Notes under the pieces: generated by a model
What the model saw: the letters and a program-made list of their open reading frames with translations, nothing else
What the model was told of the DNA's origin: nothing
The model's database searches: none
DNA from: Macrotis lagotis
Taxonomy: Eukaryota; Chordata; Mammalia; Peramelemorphia; Peramelidae
Assembly: GCF_037893015.1 (NCBI RefSeq)
Contig: NC_133666.1
Span: 226,796,996 to 226,860,995 of the forward strand
DNA length: 64,000 bases
Direction: 5' to 3'
Position numbers and translations under genes: made by a program
In this document: positions 2,585-50,408 of the stretch, piece after piece
Layout: each line of letters begins with the position of its first letter
Numbering within the stretch: position 1 is the stretch's first letter

Positions 2585-2703
2585 CATATGTGTGTATGTA
2601 TGCATAATGTGTAAGTTTGTGTATATATGTATATACATATATATTTATATATATGTATATGTGTATATATATATACATATATATGTATATATATATGTGT
2701 GTG

Positions 2704-2753
<50 letters not shown>

Positions 2754-2757
2754 TACT
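2585..2757. repeat. AT/TATG/TG microsatellite
   Basis: A compound simple repeat of tg, ta, tatg and taca units, ending in a run of pure TA before ctgtaacaagg. The apparent tyrosine/isoleucine-rich + strand frame over it is a microsatellite artefact. Confidence 0.95.
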
Positions 2758-15850: not shown

Positions 15851-16905
15851 ACCCAGCAACCACCCAGCCCTGTGGTTTGGGTCAGGCCACCCAATCCCTT
15901 GCAAGAAGTAAAAAAGGATATGTAATATATCTGACCACTCTCCCCACGATCCACCCTCTCTTCCATCTCTCACATCCCCTCCTTCCCCCTGTCCCCCTTC
16001 TCTCCTTTGTTACACTAGATGTCTATACCCCATTGAGTGTATATGCTGTTTCCTCTCCAAGCCACCTCTGATGAGAGCAAAGGTTCCCTCATTCCCCCTT
16101 GCCATCCCCCCTTCCATATCATTGCAATAGCTCATTGCAATAAAAAAATCTTATTATAAGAAATATCTTAGCCTATTCCACCATTACATTTCCCTTTTAG
16201 TCACTGACTCCATTTTTACAATATATTATATCTTCAAATTCAGCTCTCTCCTGTGCTTCATCTATAAAAGCTCTTTCTACCTGCTCTATTAAATGAGAAG
16301 TTTTATATGAATATTATCAGTATCGTTTTTCTATGCAAAAATACATGCAGTTCATCATCATTAAGCCCTTCATATTTTACCCTTCTCCACCACTCTCTAT
16401 GCTTCACCTGAGTCCTGTATTTGAAGCTCAAACTTTCTGTTCAGCTCTGGTTGTTTCAACAGGAATAATTGAAATTCCCCTGGTTCATTGAAAGTCCATC
16501 TTTTCCCCTGGAAGAAGATGTTCAGGTTTGCTGGGTAGCTGATTCTTGCTTGCATTCCAAGCTCTTTTGCCTTCTGTAATATTATATTCCACACCCTACA
16601 AGCCCTTAATGTAGTTGCTGCTAAGTCCTGTGTGATCTTGCCTGTAGCTCCACAATATTTGAATTGTGTCCTTCTGGTTCCTTGTAATATTTTCTCTTTG
16701 ACTTGGGAATTCTAGAACTTGGCTATAATATATGGGGGTTGTTTTATTTTTAGATCTTTTTCCAGGGGAGATCAGTGGATTCTCTCAATTTCTATTTTGC
16801 CCTCTGCTTCTAGGATATCTGGGCCATTTTCCTATAGGAATTCTATAAAAATGAGGTTGAGGGGCGGTGGCTGCATTTGAAACGGTCAGTGGGTCCAGCT
16901 GCAGG

Positions 16906-17331
16906 ATGAGCGCCCTGCCGCTGCCCCCGATGTGGCAGCTCTACCTGCTCAATATCTGCATCTCCACCTTCCAGAACTGGCCTTTCAAAGAGGACTGCGC
17001 CTGCACTCCAGAGCAGATAGCTGAAGCTGGGTTCATCCATTGCCCAAGTGAGAACGAGCCTGATTTAGCCCAGTGCTGCTTCTGTTTCAAGGAACTAGAG
17101 GGCTGGGAACCAGAGGATGATCCTATGTTGGAACATAAAAAGCATTCATCTCATTGTGCTTTCATCAGCATTAAGAAGATTGAAGAGTTAACACTCAATG
17201 AATTCCTGAAACTGGACAAAGAAAGAGCCAAAAACAGGATTATAAAGGAAACCTCCCGGAAAAGAACAGAATTTGAAGAGCATGCAAAGGAAGTACGGCA
17301 TAACATTGAACAACTGGCTGCATTGGAGTGA
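16906..17331 (+). CDS. BIRC5: Survivin-like single-BIR protein, intact retrocopy ORF
   Basis: Survivin is a chromosomal passenger complex subunit and inhibitor-of-apoptosis family member. This frame encodes 141 residues (human survivin 142), with no stop or frameshift. The BIR domain occupies about residues 15-89. The zinc ligands C57, C60, H77 and C84 are all present at the human positions, as are T34 (CDK1 site context CTPE), D53 and H80. The C-terminal long helix (about 97-141) is preserved and ends EQLAALE. Odd points: residues 15-18 (LNIC) differ from the human basic KDHR, and one residue is missing near 92 (human KKQFEEL, here KKIEEL), in the linker/nuclear-export region. An in-frame upstream ATG at 16867 lies in the former 5'UTR. 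I chose 16906 by homology; A at -3 gives a fair context. Whether it is expressed is unknown. Confidence 0.85.
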
Positions 17332-18290
17332 CTACTCTCCTTAATTCCTTATCCTGCAGCTTAATCATTATTTCTAAGGCATGTTCTCCAAATATTAGTG
17401 TGGAACTATTTGATGATGCCTTACAACAGAAGAGAACTTTGGGAATTTGAAATTAGACTTTATTATCTATTTTTTTAATTTTTTTTGAGGTTTTTGCAAG
17501 GCAAATGGGGTTAAGTGGCTTGCCCAAGGCCACACAGCTAGGTAATTATTAAGTGTCTGAGACCAGATTTGAACCCAGGTACTCCTGACTCCAAGGCCAG
17601 TGCTTTATCCATTATGCCACCTAGCCACCCCTATTATCTATTTTTTGCTTGAAGATGGTGCCAGATACAATTTGATTTCATTTTGTCTAGCTAGTGTTTA
17701 TGTCGTTGGTGACTTATCTTTTTTTTACCTATTTTTTTTATTTTTGTATTTTTATATTGCTGCCCCAACCTTGCCAGGTACTAGATACAGACCTGGGTGA
17801 CAAATAGAAGGGACTAACAGCACTGAAAACATTTTTATATGCTATTCATGACTGATAAACTTTCTCATAGCTAGTGTACTGTTATAGTTATTTGTTGTCT
17901 GGCTTCTATCTCTGGATTTTGGGATTTGCAGTTGAAAATATTCTGTATATGGTGAATTTATAATCCCATGGTAAATAATACAAGTAGTTAATCAAGGATG
18001 TAGTATTTTTATACTTTGTGTAATAATACTTTGGAGTTATAGTGTATCATTTTTACATTGTACACAAAACAATTTGAATATTAATTCACCTATCACTATG
18101 ACCTTTTGAAAGTACTGTTGCTTTTGTTTTATCCTGTCAGGAGTATATTTCCAATGTAAGATTTGAATGAAATCACATCACTTAACAAAACCTTTGAATG
18201 ATGCCATAGCAATATCCATTTTTTATATTTCTACTAGTGAATATATTTAATGATTCAGCAATTTAAAATATAGAGAAATAATGCCTTTTC
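17332..18290 (+). other. 3'UTR of the BIRC5 retrocopy
   Basis: AT-rich sequence following the stop codon up to the A run. A SINE interrupts it at 17476-17631. No canonical AATAAA was seen close to the A run, only an aataat variant near 18278. Confidence 0.7.
17476..17631 (-). mobile_element. tRNA-derived SINE inserted in the retrocopy 3'UTR
   Basis: The minus-strand SINE begins near ggtggctaggtgg (antisense ccacctagccaccc, ending 17631), contains the B-box-like gggttcaaatc complement and ends TTGCCTTGCAAAAA. The direct duplication tattatctatttttt lies at 17461-17475 and 17632-17646, a clean insertion younger than the retrocopy. Confidence 0.92.
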
Positions 18291-18959
18291 AAAAAAAATG
18301 AGGTTGAGGCTCTTTTTCTGATCATGACTTTCAGGTATCCAAATAATTTTTAAATTATCTTTCCCGAATTTGTTTTCCAGATCAGTTTTTTTTTCAATGA
18401 GATGTTTCACATTTTCTTCTAATTTTTCATTCTTTTGGTGCTGAAGTATTGTGTCTTGACTTCACATAAAGTCATCAGTTTCCTTTAGCTCTATTCTACA
18501 TCTGAAGGATGTGTTTTCCTCAAAGAGTTTTCTTATCTCTTTTTCCATGTGGCCAATTCTGCTTTTTAAAGCATTCTTCTCCTCAATAACTTTTTTGAAC
18601 TGTTTAATCCATTTGACCTAGGCTGGTTTTTAACCTTACTTTCTTCAGCATTTTTTTGGATCTCCTTGACTAAGCTGCTGAGACTAAGCTGCTGACTTCT
18701 TTTTCATGTTTTTCCTGCATCTCTCTCTCATTTCTTTTCTCAAATTTTTTTCTATCTCCCTTACTTGATTTTTAAAATCTCTTTTGAGCTCTGTCATAGC
18801 CTGAGCCCAACTTTTGTTTTTCTTGTAGTCTTTAGATGCTGGAGCTTGTACTTCTTCATCTTCAAATTGAGTATTTTGATCCTTCTTGGGATCATAGACA
18901 ATGTATTTCTCAGTGATGTTCCTCTTTTTTCTCTATTTACTCATTTCTCCAGCCTGTGC

Positions 18960-19750
18960 CTGGTTTTGGGGTTCTTCCTGAGCTTTTGAGTATTATTGGG
19001 ACACCCCCCTACACAAGGATCTCATTGTGTGAAGCTCTGACTTCCCTCCTGGTCTGTGAATGACCACAAGTGCACCCCTCTGCCATGTGGCTGAGGTGGG
19101 GTGGGGCCCTGTTCTATTTGGGGGGGGCACTAGACTGCAATCAGGATCTGAATGTGGTCAGAGGCCCAGAATCCTGTTCCAGGTACGAGGACAGACCTCT
19201 GAAGTCTCTCTCCACTCCCCTACCTTTGGTGGGCTGAGCACTCAGGCTCAGTTGCCTGGGGACTCCTGCTTACCAGCTCTGCTCCTGCTTTCTGACTCCA
19301 TGCCTGCTTCCTTTTCCTGGATCTGGGCTGCCCTGTGGCTGCTACTGCTGAACTGACCCCCCTGACTGCTGCAACTGCCCTGAGGGCCTGGGCTTCATGT
19401 GCTTGCTCTGGCAGAGGTCCCCTCTGATCCTCCAATTTGTGCCTGGTGCTCCTGGGGTGTAGGTCAGGAAACTGCCCCTGCTGCCCTGAGCCAAGGCTCC
19501 CAAGTGCCCTGGGGCTGCCTCCTGGAGGCTGAAGTTTCCTCACTCTGGCTGGCCACCCCTCTAACCCGGTGGAGCAGAGCCTTTCCACTATTTTCCAGGT
19601 TACCTTGGTCTAGAGAAGTGCCTCACTGGATCTTTCTGTGGGTTCTGTCTCTTGAAAATTTAGTTAGAGCCATAATTTTAAGATTTTTGAAATATTATGG
19701 AGAGAACACCTAGGAAAGGGTCTTCTCCTGTCACCATCTTGACTCCGCCC
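18960..19750 (-). promoter_or_regulatory. HAL1-like 5'UTR / putative internal promoter
   Basis: The GC-richest part of the window, starting on the minus strand with gggcggagtcaagatggtg. The caagatgg core (19733-19741 on +) resembles the YY1 site that positions L1 transcription in known L1s. Transcription from here would run left, antisense to the survivin frame. Activity is inferred only. Confidence 0.45.
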
Positions 19751-21237: not shown

Positions 21238-21271
21238 TATATACATACATACATACACACACATACACACA

Positions 21272-21327
<56 letters not shown>
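21238..21327. repeat. Long (CA)n microsatellite
   Basis: About 45 dinucleotides, initially mixed with taca units and then pure CA. Confidence 0.97.
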
Positions 21328-27099: not shown

Positions 27100-28756
27100 A
27101 GGTTATATGACTGAAATTTTCCAGGTTATATGGCATGAAGCAGTTATCCCCCAAGAATTCAAGGATGCCTCCTTCATGTATTTATATAAAGATAAAGGGA
27201 ATAGATTGTACTGTGACAATCATAGGGATATATCTGCTTTAGTCATTGTTGGTAAGATTCTGCCAGAGTTCTTCTTAATAGGTTGATCCTGCATCTGGAT
27301 GTTGGTCAACTCCCTGGAAGCCAGTGTAGCTTCAGAAATGGTCAAAGAACACTTGATATGGTATTTGTTGACTGACAATTCCAGGAAAACTACCAGGTAC
27401 AGAAAACATTTGTAGATCTTACCAAAACCTTTGATACCATCAGTCATGAGGCTTATGAAAAAATATGCTAAAATTTGGTTGCCCAGGGAAGTTCATCAGT
27501 ATTGTATGTCAGTTCCATGATGGCATGCATGCCCAGGTTCTGAATAGTGGATGATACTCTTAAGGTTTCCCAGTCACCAATGGAGTGAAACATGGGTGTG
27601 TTCTTGCTCCCATACTTTTTAGCATGTTTTCAGCCATGTTATCAAACTGCTACACTGAGGATGAACATGGCCTCAAGATCATCTACTGCACAGATGGCAA
27701 ATTCTTCAACTTGAAAAGGCTACAAGCCAAGACCAAAGTGGAGGGAGTGTTGGTGCATGATCTTCTGTTTGTAGATGATTGTGAACTCAATGCAGCCTCT
27801 GAAGTCAAGATGCAACAAAGTATGGATCAATTCTTTGCTACTGATTTTGACCTAACAATTAACACCAAGATAACCCAGATGCTCCATCAGCCAGCACCAC
27901 ACCACCCATATGTGGAACCATTGGTTAAAGCAAATGGAGAAGTTTAGACAACTGTGGACAAGTGCATTTATCTTGGCAGTGTCCTATACATTGACAATGA
28001 GGTTGACACAGTCATTGTCAGGACTAGCTCAGTATTTGGGAGACTCTGAAAGCAAGTATAAGAGAGAAGAGGTATTAGACTGACTACCAAACTGAAGATC
28101 TACAGAGCTGTTGTGCTGACCTCATTGTTATTTGCCTGTGAAACCTGCACAGTCTACCAGCAGCATGTCAGGAAAGTGAATTGCTTCTATTTAAATTGCC
28201 TTAGGAAGATTCTGAAGATCACCTGACAGGAGAAGATACCAGACACTGAGGTCCTTTCTTGACCTAAACTACCTAGCATTCCAACATTACTACAGAGTAT
28301 AACTACAATCATCTGGTCATGTTGTTAGAATGCCAGAAATACACTTGTCAAAAAGACTATTTTATGGAAAACTCACCTAGAGCAAACACTCACAAGGGGG
28401 TGAGAAGAAATGATACCTGGACACCATGAAAGACTTTATTAAGGACTTTAGAACTGATTGTACATACAGCATGGAAGACATTGGCCCAGGACCACCCAGC
28501 ATGGTGTGCCCTCCTCAGTGAGGGTATCGTGCTCTTTGAGGAAGGCAGAATTGAAGCAGCAACTTTGAAAGTTATGTATAAACTTTACACATAAGTTTAG
28601 AGTAAGTTCCTCAGATGTTCACATGGACTATTTGCGCCTCATCTGGTAGAGCATTCTGAGCTAATATAGGTCTGATCAGCCACAGTTAGACACCTTGTAA
28701 TTTGTCTCAAATTCAGTGATGTCATTGTCTTCTTTGATAATGAAGAACAAAAATCA
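27100..28756 (+). pseudogene. RTE-clade retrotransposon reverse-transcriptase relic
   Basis: RTE elements encode an endonuclease/reverse transcriptase that copies its own RNA at a nicked target. In successive frames I read RT blocks in order: KDASFMYLYKDKGNR and CDNHRDISA (27165-27235), VDLTKTFDTISHEA-like sequence, VKHGCVLAPILFSMFSAML (about 27582), then the catalytic box LLFVDDCELNAA (about 27763, normally FADD), LTINTK and a YLGSVL thumb motif (about 27970). Later a 'VCETCT'-like block and a 'WRGC' relic are broken by frameshifts. The 3' end (tgataatgaagaacaaaa) resembles the tails of the composite SINEs. The endonuclease part is absent (5' truncated). Confidence 0.8.
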
Positions 28757-29360: not shown

Positions 29361-30124
29361 CTGCGCCCATCAATTGGAGAATGACAAAACAAGTTGTGGT
29401 ATATGATTGTGATGGTATACTAAATTGCTATTAGAAATGATGAGGAAAGGGACAGCTAGGTGGCGTAGTGGATAAAGCACCAGCCCTGGAGTCAGGAGTA
29501 CCTGGGTTCAAATCTGGTCTCAGACACTTAATAATTACCTAGCTGTGTGGCCTTGGGCAAGCCACTTAACCCCATTTGCCTTGCAAAAACCTAAAAAAAA
29601 AAAATTGACCTCAGACAATAATTACCTAGCTGTGTAATCTTAAGCAAGTCACTTAACCCCATTGCCTTGCAAAAAAAAATGAAATGAGGAGGAGGATGGT
29701 TTCAGAAAATACTTGGGAAGACTTTATGAATGAATGCAAAGTTAAGTGAACAGAACCAGGAAAACCCTGTACACTTTAACAACAATATTGTAATGATATA
29801 TTAATTATGATTAATTATCTACTCTGATCAATACAATGATCCAAGGCAATTCCAAAGGACCCATGATGAAAAATGCTATCTACAAAGTGAGAACTGATGA
29901 ACTTTGAGCGATAGTTGAAGAACACTTTTTTTATTTTCTTTATGTTTCTGACTTTTAATATATTTATAACAAGATAAATATAGAAATGTTTTGTATGAAT
30001 TATCATGTATAATTGATATCATATTGCTTATCTTCTCAATGAATGGGGAAGGGTGAAAAGGAGAGACATTAGAGTTCAATTTTTTAATGGATGTTAGCAA
30101 TAAATCAATAAAAACTGAAAAAAA
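29361..30124 (+). mobile_element. 5'-truncated L1 3' end, plus strand
   Basis: It starts inside the distal ORF2 region (catcaattggagaatgac, 'gtggtatatgattgtgatgg') and contains the block 'agtgaacagaaccaggaaaa'. It runs through a 3'UTR (ccaattccaaaggaccca is preserved as 'ggcaattccaaaggac') to an A-rich tail. A 10-bp duplication with one mismatch, taaaagggca (29351-29360) and taaatgggca (30125-30134), frames it. A SINE is nested at 29449-29679. Confidence 0.8.
29449..29679 (+). mobile_element. tRNA-derived SINE with a partial second copy of its 3' half
   Basis: The full monomer runs from gacagctaggtggcg to cttgcaaaaacc and an A tail (29608). A second partial SINE follows directly (29610-29679, 'cctcagacaataattaccta' to gccttgcaaaaa). 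The sequence gaaatgatgagga to the left and gaaatgaggagga to the right look like its target duplication. Confidence 0.8.
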
Positions 30125-50256: not shown

Positions 50257-50408
50257 CTTTTTTTTAAGTTTTTGCAAGGCAATGGGGTTAAGTGGCTTGC
50301 CCAAGGCCACACGGATAAGTAATTATTAAGTGTCTGAGGTCAGATTTGAACTCAGGTACTCCTGACTCCAGGGCCAGTGCTGTATGCACTGCGCCACCTA
50401 ACCGCCCC
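50257..50408 (-). mobile_element. tRNA-derived SINE, minus strand
   Basis: The + strand shows tttttgcaaggcaatggggt, 'cttgcccaaggccacacgga' and 'tgcgccacctaaccgcccc'. C-rich tcat-ending flanks (about 50242-50256 and 50409-50420) look like its duplication. Confidence 0.88.

What the first reader, a model, noticed from the sequence alone, without database searches (positions are those of the whole stretch)
16906..17331. Uninterrupted survivin ORF in a retrocopy
The sequence shows a stop-free 141-codon survivin frame without introns, while the host HAL1 ORF1 around it carries a stop. All four zinc ligands and T34, D53 and H80 are at their human positions. Survivin (BIRC5) normally has introns, so this is a processed copy. 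Either the copy is recent or selection keeps it open; an expressed second survivin would matter for mitosis and apoptosis control, and for cancer biology if the host is a dasyurid.
Basis: partly seen in the sequence, partly recalled or inferred. Interest (0 to 1): 0.75.

Follow-up and report, generated by a model that had tools for sequence, protein, structure and literature searches.

The report
Neutrally drifting marsupial survivin retrocopy
This is a copy of the cell-division gene survivin that a jumping-gene machinery pasted into an old repeat in what looks like a marsupial genome; it still reads as an open protein, but its changes look like those of unused DNA, so it is most likely an ordinary processed pseudogene that has not yet been broken.

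Summary
Positions 16906-17331 encode a stop-free 141-residue survivin (BIRC5) with the zinc ligands, T34, D53 and H80. It is a LINE-1-type retrocopy: a 16-bp target-site duplication (16847-16862, 18294-18309) brackets a 1,431-bp insert with 5' UTR, coding region, 3' UTR and short A tail, inside an L1 ORF1. The closest protein listed is exons 2-4 of Tasmanian devil BIRC5 (91-92% over about 100 residues). Selection is not supported. The copy lacks a codon that the six other marsupial proteins seen have and has changed two residues found in 124 of 124 non-marsupial survivins (M38I, F58C). It has 7 private changes (one the deletion) against 0-1 in the devil gene, and its replacements fall on conserved sites as often as neutral mutation predicts (3 of 12, expected 3.9). 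Such a frame stays open by chance 7-27% of the time at this divergence (assumed indel rates). Some database 'BIRC5' proteins of possum, wombat and two opossums look like similar copies (inference). Host, parental DNA and expression could not be tested: the genome search did not complete.

The parts
16847..16862 (+). 5' copy of the target-site duplication, AAAAATGAGGTTGAGG
   Evidence: the only two exact occurrences on this strand of the window are at 16847 and 18294; repeat family D2
16863..16905 (+). remnant of the parental 5' untranslated region, 63% G+C in a 35% G+C window
   Evidence: base composition; position between target-site duplication and ATG; homology to a known 5' untranslated region was not tested
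16876..16881 (+). TTTGAA, the canonical CHR cell-cycle element sequence, 30 bases before the ATG
   Evidence: canonical sequence from PMC4705690 passages; chance about 0.04 in this stretch on this strand at the window's average; function not tested
16906..17331 (+). open frame, 141 codons plus stop, survivin (BIRC5) retrocopy with F58C, M38I, R18C and one missing lysine codon
17332..18293 (+). retrocopied 3' untranslated region (interrupted by a SINE-like repeat); it ends in a short A run that merges with the target-site duplication
   Evidence: AATAAT at 18277 is a possible decayed poly(A) signal; homology to a known 3' untranslated region was not tested
17476..17631 (-). SINE-like repeat inserted in the 3' untranslated region (called a SINE from its form and recalled knowledge)
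   Evidence: other copies in the window at 29601-29455 (96%), 50258-50408 (89%), 60614-60469 (89%), 53621-53467 (79%) and four shorter pieces; family name not tested
17461..17475 (+). target-site duplication of the SINE-like repeat, left copy TATTATCTATTTTTT
   Evidence: repeat family D4
17632..17646 (+). target-site duplication of the SINE-like repeat, right copy
   Evidence: repeat family D4
18294..18309 (+). 3' copy of the retrocopy's target-site duplication
16440..16862 (-). host L1 ORF1, C-terminal side, three stops in frame within this stretch
   Evidence: Tnp_22_dsRBD PF17490 E = 7.9e-06, 26.3 bits against a cut-off of 22.2, in a stop-free piece that reaches on below 16440
18310..18960 (-). 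host L1 ORF1, N-terminal side, stops and a stretch that reads on in another frame; its frame continues into the left flank once the insert is left out; the ends of the L1 were not mapped

Best explanation
A spliced, polyadenylated BIRC5 mRNA was reverse-transcribed by L1 machinery in the germ line of a marsupial ancestor and inserted into an L1 ORF1 (shown by anatomy; marsupial by nearest proteins). Since then it has drifted under little or no protein-level constraint: a processed pseudogene whose short reading frame has by chance not yet taken a stop or frameshift (inferred from rate and pattern). If it is transcribed at all, I expect no selected protein function.
For: Target-site duplication 16/16 exact, with the L1 frame continuing across the empty site. 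Frame contiguous across the exon-1/exon-2 border: the devil gene model P0036 switches from AFMID sequence (P0131, 99% over 42% of P0036) to BIRC5 at M38. Private changes of the copy (the deletion counted as one) 7 against 0 in the devil gene over 105 sites (one-sided p 0.008, 2 sites unresolved), or 7 against 1 with another reference set (p 0.035, 1 unresolved); against possum BIRC5 over 142 sites 11:3 (p 0.029, 9 unresolved) or 14:3 (p 0.006, 6 unresolved) (four overlapping tests, not corrected). Tree branch of the copy 0.094, devil branch 0. M38I and F58C at sites invariant in 112 of 112 and, without a filter that might have favoured M38, in 124 of 124 non-marsupial proteins; R18C at a site with R in 118 of 121. 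3 of 12 replacements at sites at least 95% conserved, neutral expectation 3.9, P(<=3) = 0.41. Replacement divergence 0.041 per site against 5 of 150 (0.033) in the SINE-like repeat inside the insert. Chance of a still open frame 0.07-0.27 at 17 substitutions (assumed indel rates).
Against: The frame is open with start and stop, the one deletion is exactly three bases, and the zinc ligands are kept; weak selection would also give this. Nine of 12 replacements lie at less conserved sites, and Q37 is found in 17 of 112 panel proteins. Three of the 12 (C18, Q37, H127) are shared with a suspected retrocopy of another marsupial, so they may not be private. A ratio of 0.5 to the repeat's rate is not excluded (P 0.068, or 0.030 with 14 changes). 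AlphaFold2 gives the survivin fold, though it is insensitive to such changes.
Confidence: 0.85

Rival explanations
1. An expressed retrogene: the copy makes a second survivin, its internal TTTGAA (CHR) giving cell-cycle control, and is kept by selection.
For: Open frame with an A at -3 of the start codon, zinc ligands and T34/D53/H80 kept; predicted survivin fold, best PDB matches human survivin with TM about 0.8; TTTGAA 30 bases before the ATG, the canonical CHR sequence.
Against: Faster change than the orthologues, loss of residues invariant in 124 of 124 non-marsupial survivins, replacements spread as neutral; no transcript data; one CHR hexamer without tested CDE or CCAAT boxes is weak evidence for a promoter.
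Confidence: 0.07
2. A transcribed but non-coding retrocopy, acting for example as antisense or microRNA decoy for BIRC5 mRNA.
For: About 790 bases of presumed 3' untranslated region (17332-18293 less the repeat and one of its duplications; coordinates) were carried along, so shared microRNA sites are possible; inference only.
Against: No transcription evidence; nothing in these calls tests it.
Confidence: 0.05
3. A very recent copy whose open frame only reflects youth, near-identical to the host's own BIRC5, which itself differs from the devil's.
Against: M38I and F58C would then have to be in the host's own BIRC5, against 124 of 124 non-marsupial proteins and, among the six other marsupial ones, five for M38 (the sixth has L) and six for F58; the A run is only about eight bases.
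Confidence: 0.03

Closest known systems
BIRC5 (survivin) of Sarcophilus harrisii, gene model P0036 (AFMID-BIRC5 fused model, exons 2-4)
   Same: 91-92% identical over about 100 residues; shares E95 (human numbering) with the copy where the possum, wombat and opossum proteins have D or Y
   Different: joined to AFMID sequence; keeps M38, F58, S83 and KKK. E95 is also the state of the eutherian proteins, so it is weak evidence of kinship
L1-mediated processed pseudogenes / retrocopies of mammals (recalled class)
   Same: no introns, untranslated regions, A tail, target-site duplication
   Different: still open over the whole coding region
'BIRC5' and 'BIRC5-like' database proteins of other marsupials: P0003 Trichosurus, P0006 Vombatus, P0016 Gracilinanus, P0147 Monodelphis
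   Different: P0016 and P0147 have C57Y, P0006 has H80L and W67L; none of the four shares the copy's lysine deletion, F58C or M38I (P0016 has M38L)

Membership tests
L1-type processed retrocopy | target-site duplication of about 7-20 bases | tested here: met
   16 bp exact, two occurrences on this strand
L1-type processed retrocopy | introns absent where the parent has them | tested here: met
   parent border at M38 shown by the AFMID fusion model; copy contiguous there. The other intron positions are recalled, not tested
L1-type processed retrocopy | A tail at the 3' end | tested here: met
   short, about eight A, of which five lie in the duplication
survivin (BIRC5) protein family | BIR domain with C57, C60, H77, C84 and a long C-terminal helix | tested here: met
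   helix 97-140 in the model
survivin (BIRC5) protein family | residues invariant in the survivins compared | tested here: not met
   M38I and F58C; 0 of 124 non-marsupial proteins have I38 or C58. By descent it is still a survivin copy
functional retrogene | purifying selection on the copy's branch | tested here: inconclusive
   protein-level rate and pattern look neutral, but dN/dS needs parental DNA
functional retrogene | copy-specific transcription or protein | not testable with these tools
   no RNA-seq or proteomics
HAL1 as host element | ORF1-only L1 derivative | not tested
   only the L1 ORF1 dsRBD-like domain was found

The most novel reading that the evidence does not exclude
The retrocopy carried its own cell-cycle switch: the CHR hexamer TTTGAA lies inside the copied 5' untranslated region, so the insert could be driven in dividing cells by MuvB complexes at its new place and make a second survivin with an altered BIR core (F58C) and a shortened export-signal/linker stretch.
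Probability: 0.05. Interest if true: 0.6.

Novelty: new member of a known kind. Interest (0 to 1): 0.2.

Why it matters
As a processed pseudogene it is of modest value: one more retrotransposition event, and a warning that survivin retrocopies in marsupials may pass for BIRC5 in databases (the wombat entry P0006 has lost H80 and W67). If the host is the Tasmanian devil it would need masking when the BIRC5 amplification on chromosome 4 of DFT1 tumours is studied (PMC7685465 and PMC7614631, one passage each). If, against expectation, it is expressed, it would be a second survivin with changed core residues.

Tried and rejected
Tried without result: the genome search on the window's own genome for PF00653 was asked ten times and never answered, so parental BIRC5 DNA, dN/dS and orthologous insertions stayed out of reach. 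A viral-contig scan for relatives found none. Rfam and tRNA scans of the window found nothing. The bacterial promoter scan does not apply to a marsupial and was not used. No further BIRC5 piece was found in the window: the other tblastn pieces have E of 0.68 or worse.

Papers: no paper of the library holds both 'BIRC5' and 'retrocopy'. The listings for survivin with pseudogene and retrotransposition (8 of 8 shown), survivin with processed pseudogene (12 of 12), BIRC5 with Tasmanian devil (4 of 4) and a mixed search (10 of 84 shown) show no title or abstract start about a marsupial survivin copy; (20 of 775 shown) was spoiled by matching 'surviving'. Searches (10 of 28 shown; 12 of 20; 8 of 27; 8 of 168) were for background. 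Beyond listings I saw only passages, of seven papers: PMC7614631, PMC7685465, PMC4747163, PMC4705690, PMC5509963, PMC13251070 and PMC8470780; the retrocopy papers among them gave no number for marsupials in the passages seen.

Considered and rejected: that the kept zinc ligands show selection; with 12 replacements over 141 codons, four given codons stay unchanged more often than not (inference). That a decayed host L1 beside an open copy shows selection: the host must be older than the insert. The repeat clock is conditional: if the repeat came later than the copy, the copy's neutral divergence is higher and the ratio lower than 1.2; if it came with the parent, the reverse; its consensus rests on four other copies.

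Counts, rows dropped and controls. One search lists 18 positions where the copy's residue is not that of both nearest proteins (devil, possum); I used 12 replacements and the deletion, and left out positions 4, 5, 9, 14 and 36 because parent states there are unclear or shared with other marsupials. C18, Q37 and H127 were kept though one suspected retrocopy each shares them. The ancestral letters were set by hand (for example E114, where possum and wombat have V). The panel of 112 was taken from the non-marsupial hits among P0002-P0152 of 136-165 residues that contain the letters MA, not curated for orthology; as that filter could favour M38 I repeated it without (113, and 124 with later hits): M38 and F58 stay invariant, and the same three changed sites are at least 95% conserved. 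The neutral expectation of 3.9 was computed on the first panel only. All protein panels come from capped lists (best 120 of 265; best 120 of 286; all 74). Two of the four copy-against-parent tests use suspected retrocopies as references; those without gave 7:1 and 14:3. Other pairs in the same call: possum against devil 1:0 with 8 unresolved; wombat against possum 14:3 (p 0.006) and against devil 9:1 (p 0.011); possum-like against possum 6:2 (p 0.14, so P0003 is not shown to be fast); Gracilinanus-like against devil 27:0, most of it a missing end.

Full report
What is there. The frame at 16906-17331 is real: 141 codons and a stop, human survivin with E = 2.8e-67, one BIR domain, and the named residues in place. 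It is one of 22 ATG-started frames of at least 80 codons in the window, so its length alone means little; the homology is what counts. No other part of the window matches survivin beyond chance (tblastn E 0.68 or worse).

How it got there. A 16-base word occurs exactly twice on the + strand of the window, at 16847 and 18294, and brackets a 1,431-base insert. The insert starts with 43 G+C-rich bases (63% in a 35% window), then the coding frame, then a presumed 3' untranslated region and about eight A, five of them inside the duplication. Leaving the insert out, the reading frame of an L1 ORF1 on the minus strand runs on from one flank into the other, and one piece of it matches the L1 ORF1 dsRBD-like domain. 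That host frame carries at least five stops and a stretch that reads on in another frame. A SINE-like repeat with its own exact 15-base duplication sits in the 3' untranslated region. This is what L1-mediated retroposition of a spliced mRNA leaves behind. That the parent has an intron at the relevant place is shown by the devil gene model P0036, which runs from AFMID sequence straight into BIRC5 at M38; the copy is contiguous there.

Which lineage. Of the proteins listed, the copy is closest to exons 2-4 of the devil gene (92% over 104 columns, path 0.11), then possum BIRC5 (84%). It shares E95 with the devil, whereas the possum, wombat and opossum proteins have D or Y; but eutherians also have E there. 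The tree fork is not well supported (82/80). So a marsupial host, perhaps a dasyurid, is inferred; no call names it.

Is it kept by selection? Four lines say no, none alone decisive. First, rate: the copy has 7 private changes, one of them the deletion, against 0 or 1 in the devil gene, and against possum BIRC5 11:3 or 14:3, depending on the references, with 1 to 9 sites unresolved. Second, sites: M38 and F58 are the same in 112 of 112 and 124 of 124 non-marsupial survivins and changed here; R18 is R in 118 of 121 and changed. Third, pattern: 3 of 12 replacements fall on sites at least 95% conserved, where a neutral mutation model expects 3.9; P(3 or fewer) is 0.41. Fourth, a rough inner clock: 0.041 replacements per replacement site against 0.033 substitutions per site in the repeat inside the insert; a ratio of 0.3 or less is unlikely (P 0.005) and 0.5 is not excluded (P 0.068), if both are of one age, which is not known. 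R18C, R37Q and R127H are the kind of change that CpG decay makes (inference). Against this stand the open frame, the in-frame deletion, the kept zinc ligands, and the nine replacements at less conserved sites (Q37, for example, is in 17 of 112 panel proteins). With 17 substitutions a frame of this length stays open with a chance of 0.07-0.27, depending on the assumed indel rate, and open copies are the ones a reader picks out.

Could it work if expressed? AlphaFold2 on a 28-row alignment gives the survivin fold (best model mean pLDDT 84, pTM 0.69, but only two of the five models above 80), and the best PDB matches are human survivins with TM about 0.8. Such models hardly feel single replacements, so this does not test function. 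The TTTGAA 30 bases before the ATG is the canonical CHR (PMC4705690 passage), an element type that controls survivin (PMC4747163 passages). It is expected by chance about 0.04 times in this stretch on that strand. It makes the novel case thinkable, no more.

Company. Survivin-like proteins P0006, P0016 and P0147 from wombat and two opossums have lost key residues (H80L and W67L in P0006, C57Y in P0016 and P0147), and P0003 from possum has G42V and other own changes, though its excess over the possum gene is not significant (6:2, p 0.14). P0016 and P0147 group with good support (95/92).

Verdict. Observation right, retrocopy right, selection unlikely, expression untested. Interest 0.2.

Noticed in passing
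protein P0006 (UniProt entry, Vombatus ursinus): The wombat 'BIRC5' database protein has H80L, W67L, R119W and R132W and looks like a translated retrocopy rather than the true gene; no other wombat BIRC5 is in the lists shown (120 of 265, 120 of 286 and 74 of 74 hits).
   Followed up: partly
proteins P0016 and P0147 (Gracilinanus, Monodelphis): Both opossum 'BIRC5-like' proteins share C57Y, a lost zinc ligand, and group together (95/92), as if one survivin retrocopy were shared by didelphids.
   Followed up: partly
protein P0036 (Sarcophilus harrisii): The devil BIRC5 database model is an AFMID-BIRC5 fusion lacking survivin exon 1.
   Followed up: yes
window 27624-27947 (+): A 107-codon frame with FVDD-like wording that recalls a retroelement reverse transcriptase (from memory); no Pfam match at E 0.01.
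   Followed up: partly
window 29455-29675: A copy of the SINE-like repeat 96% identical to the one in the retrocopy, directly beside a second partial copy.
   Followed up: partly
window 2620-2756 and 21243-21326: TA-rich and CA-type microsatellites.
   Followed up: no
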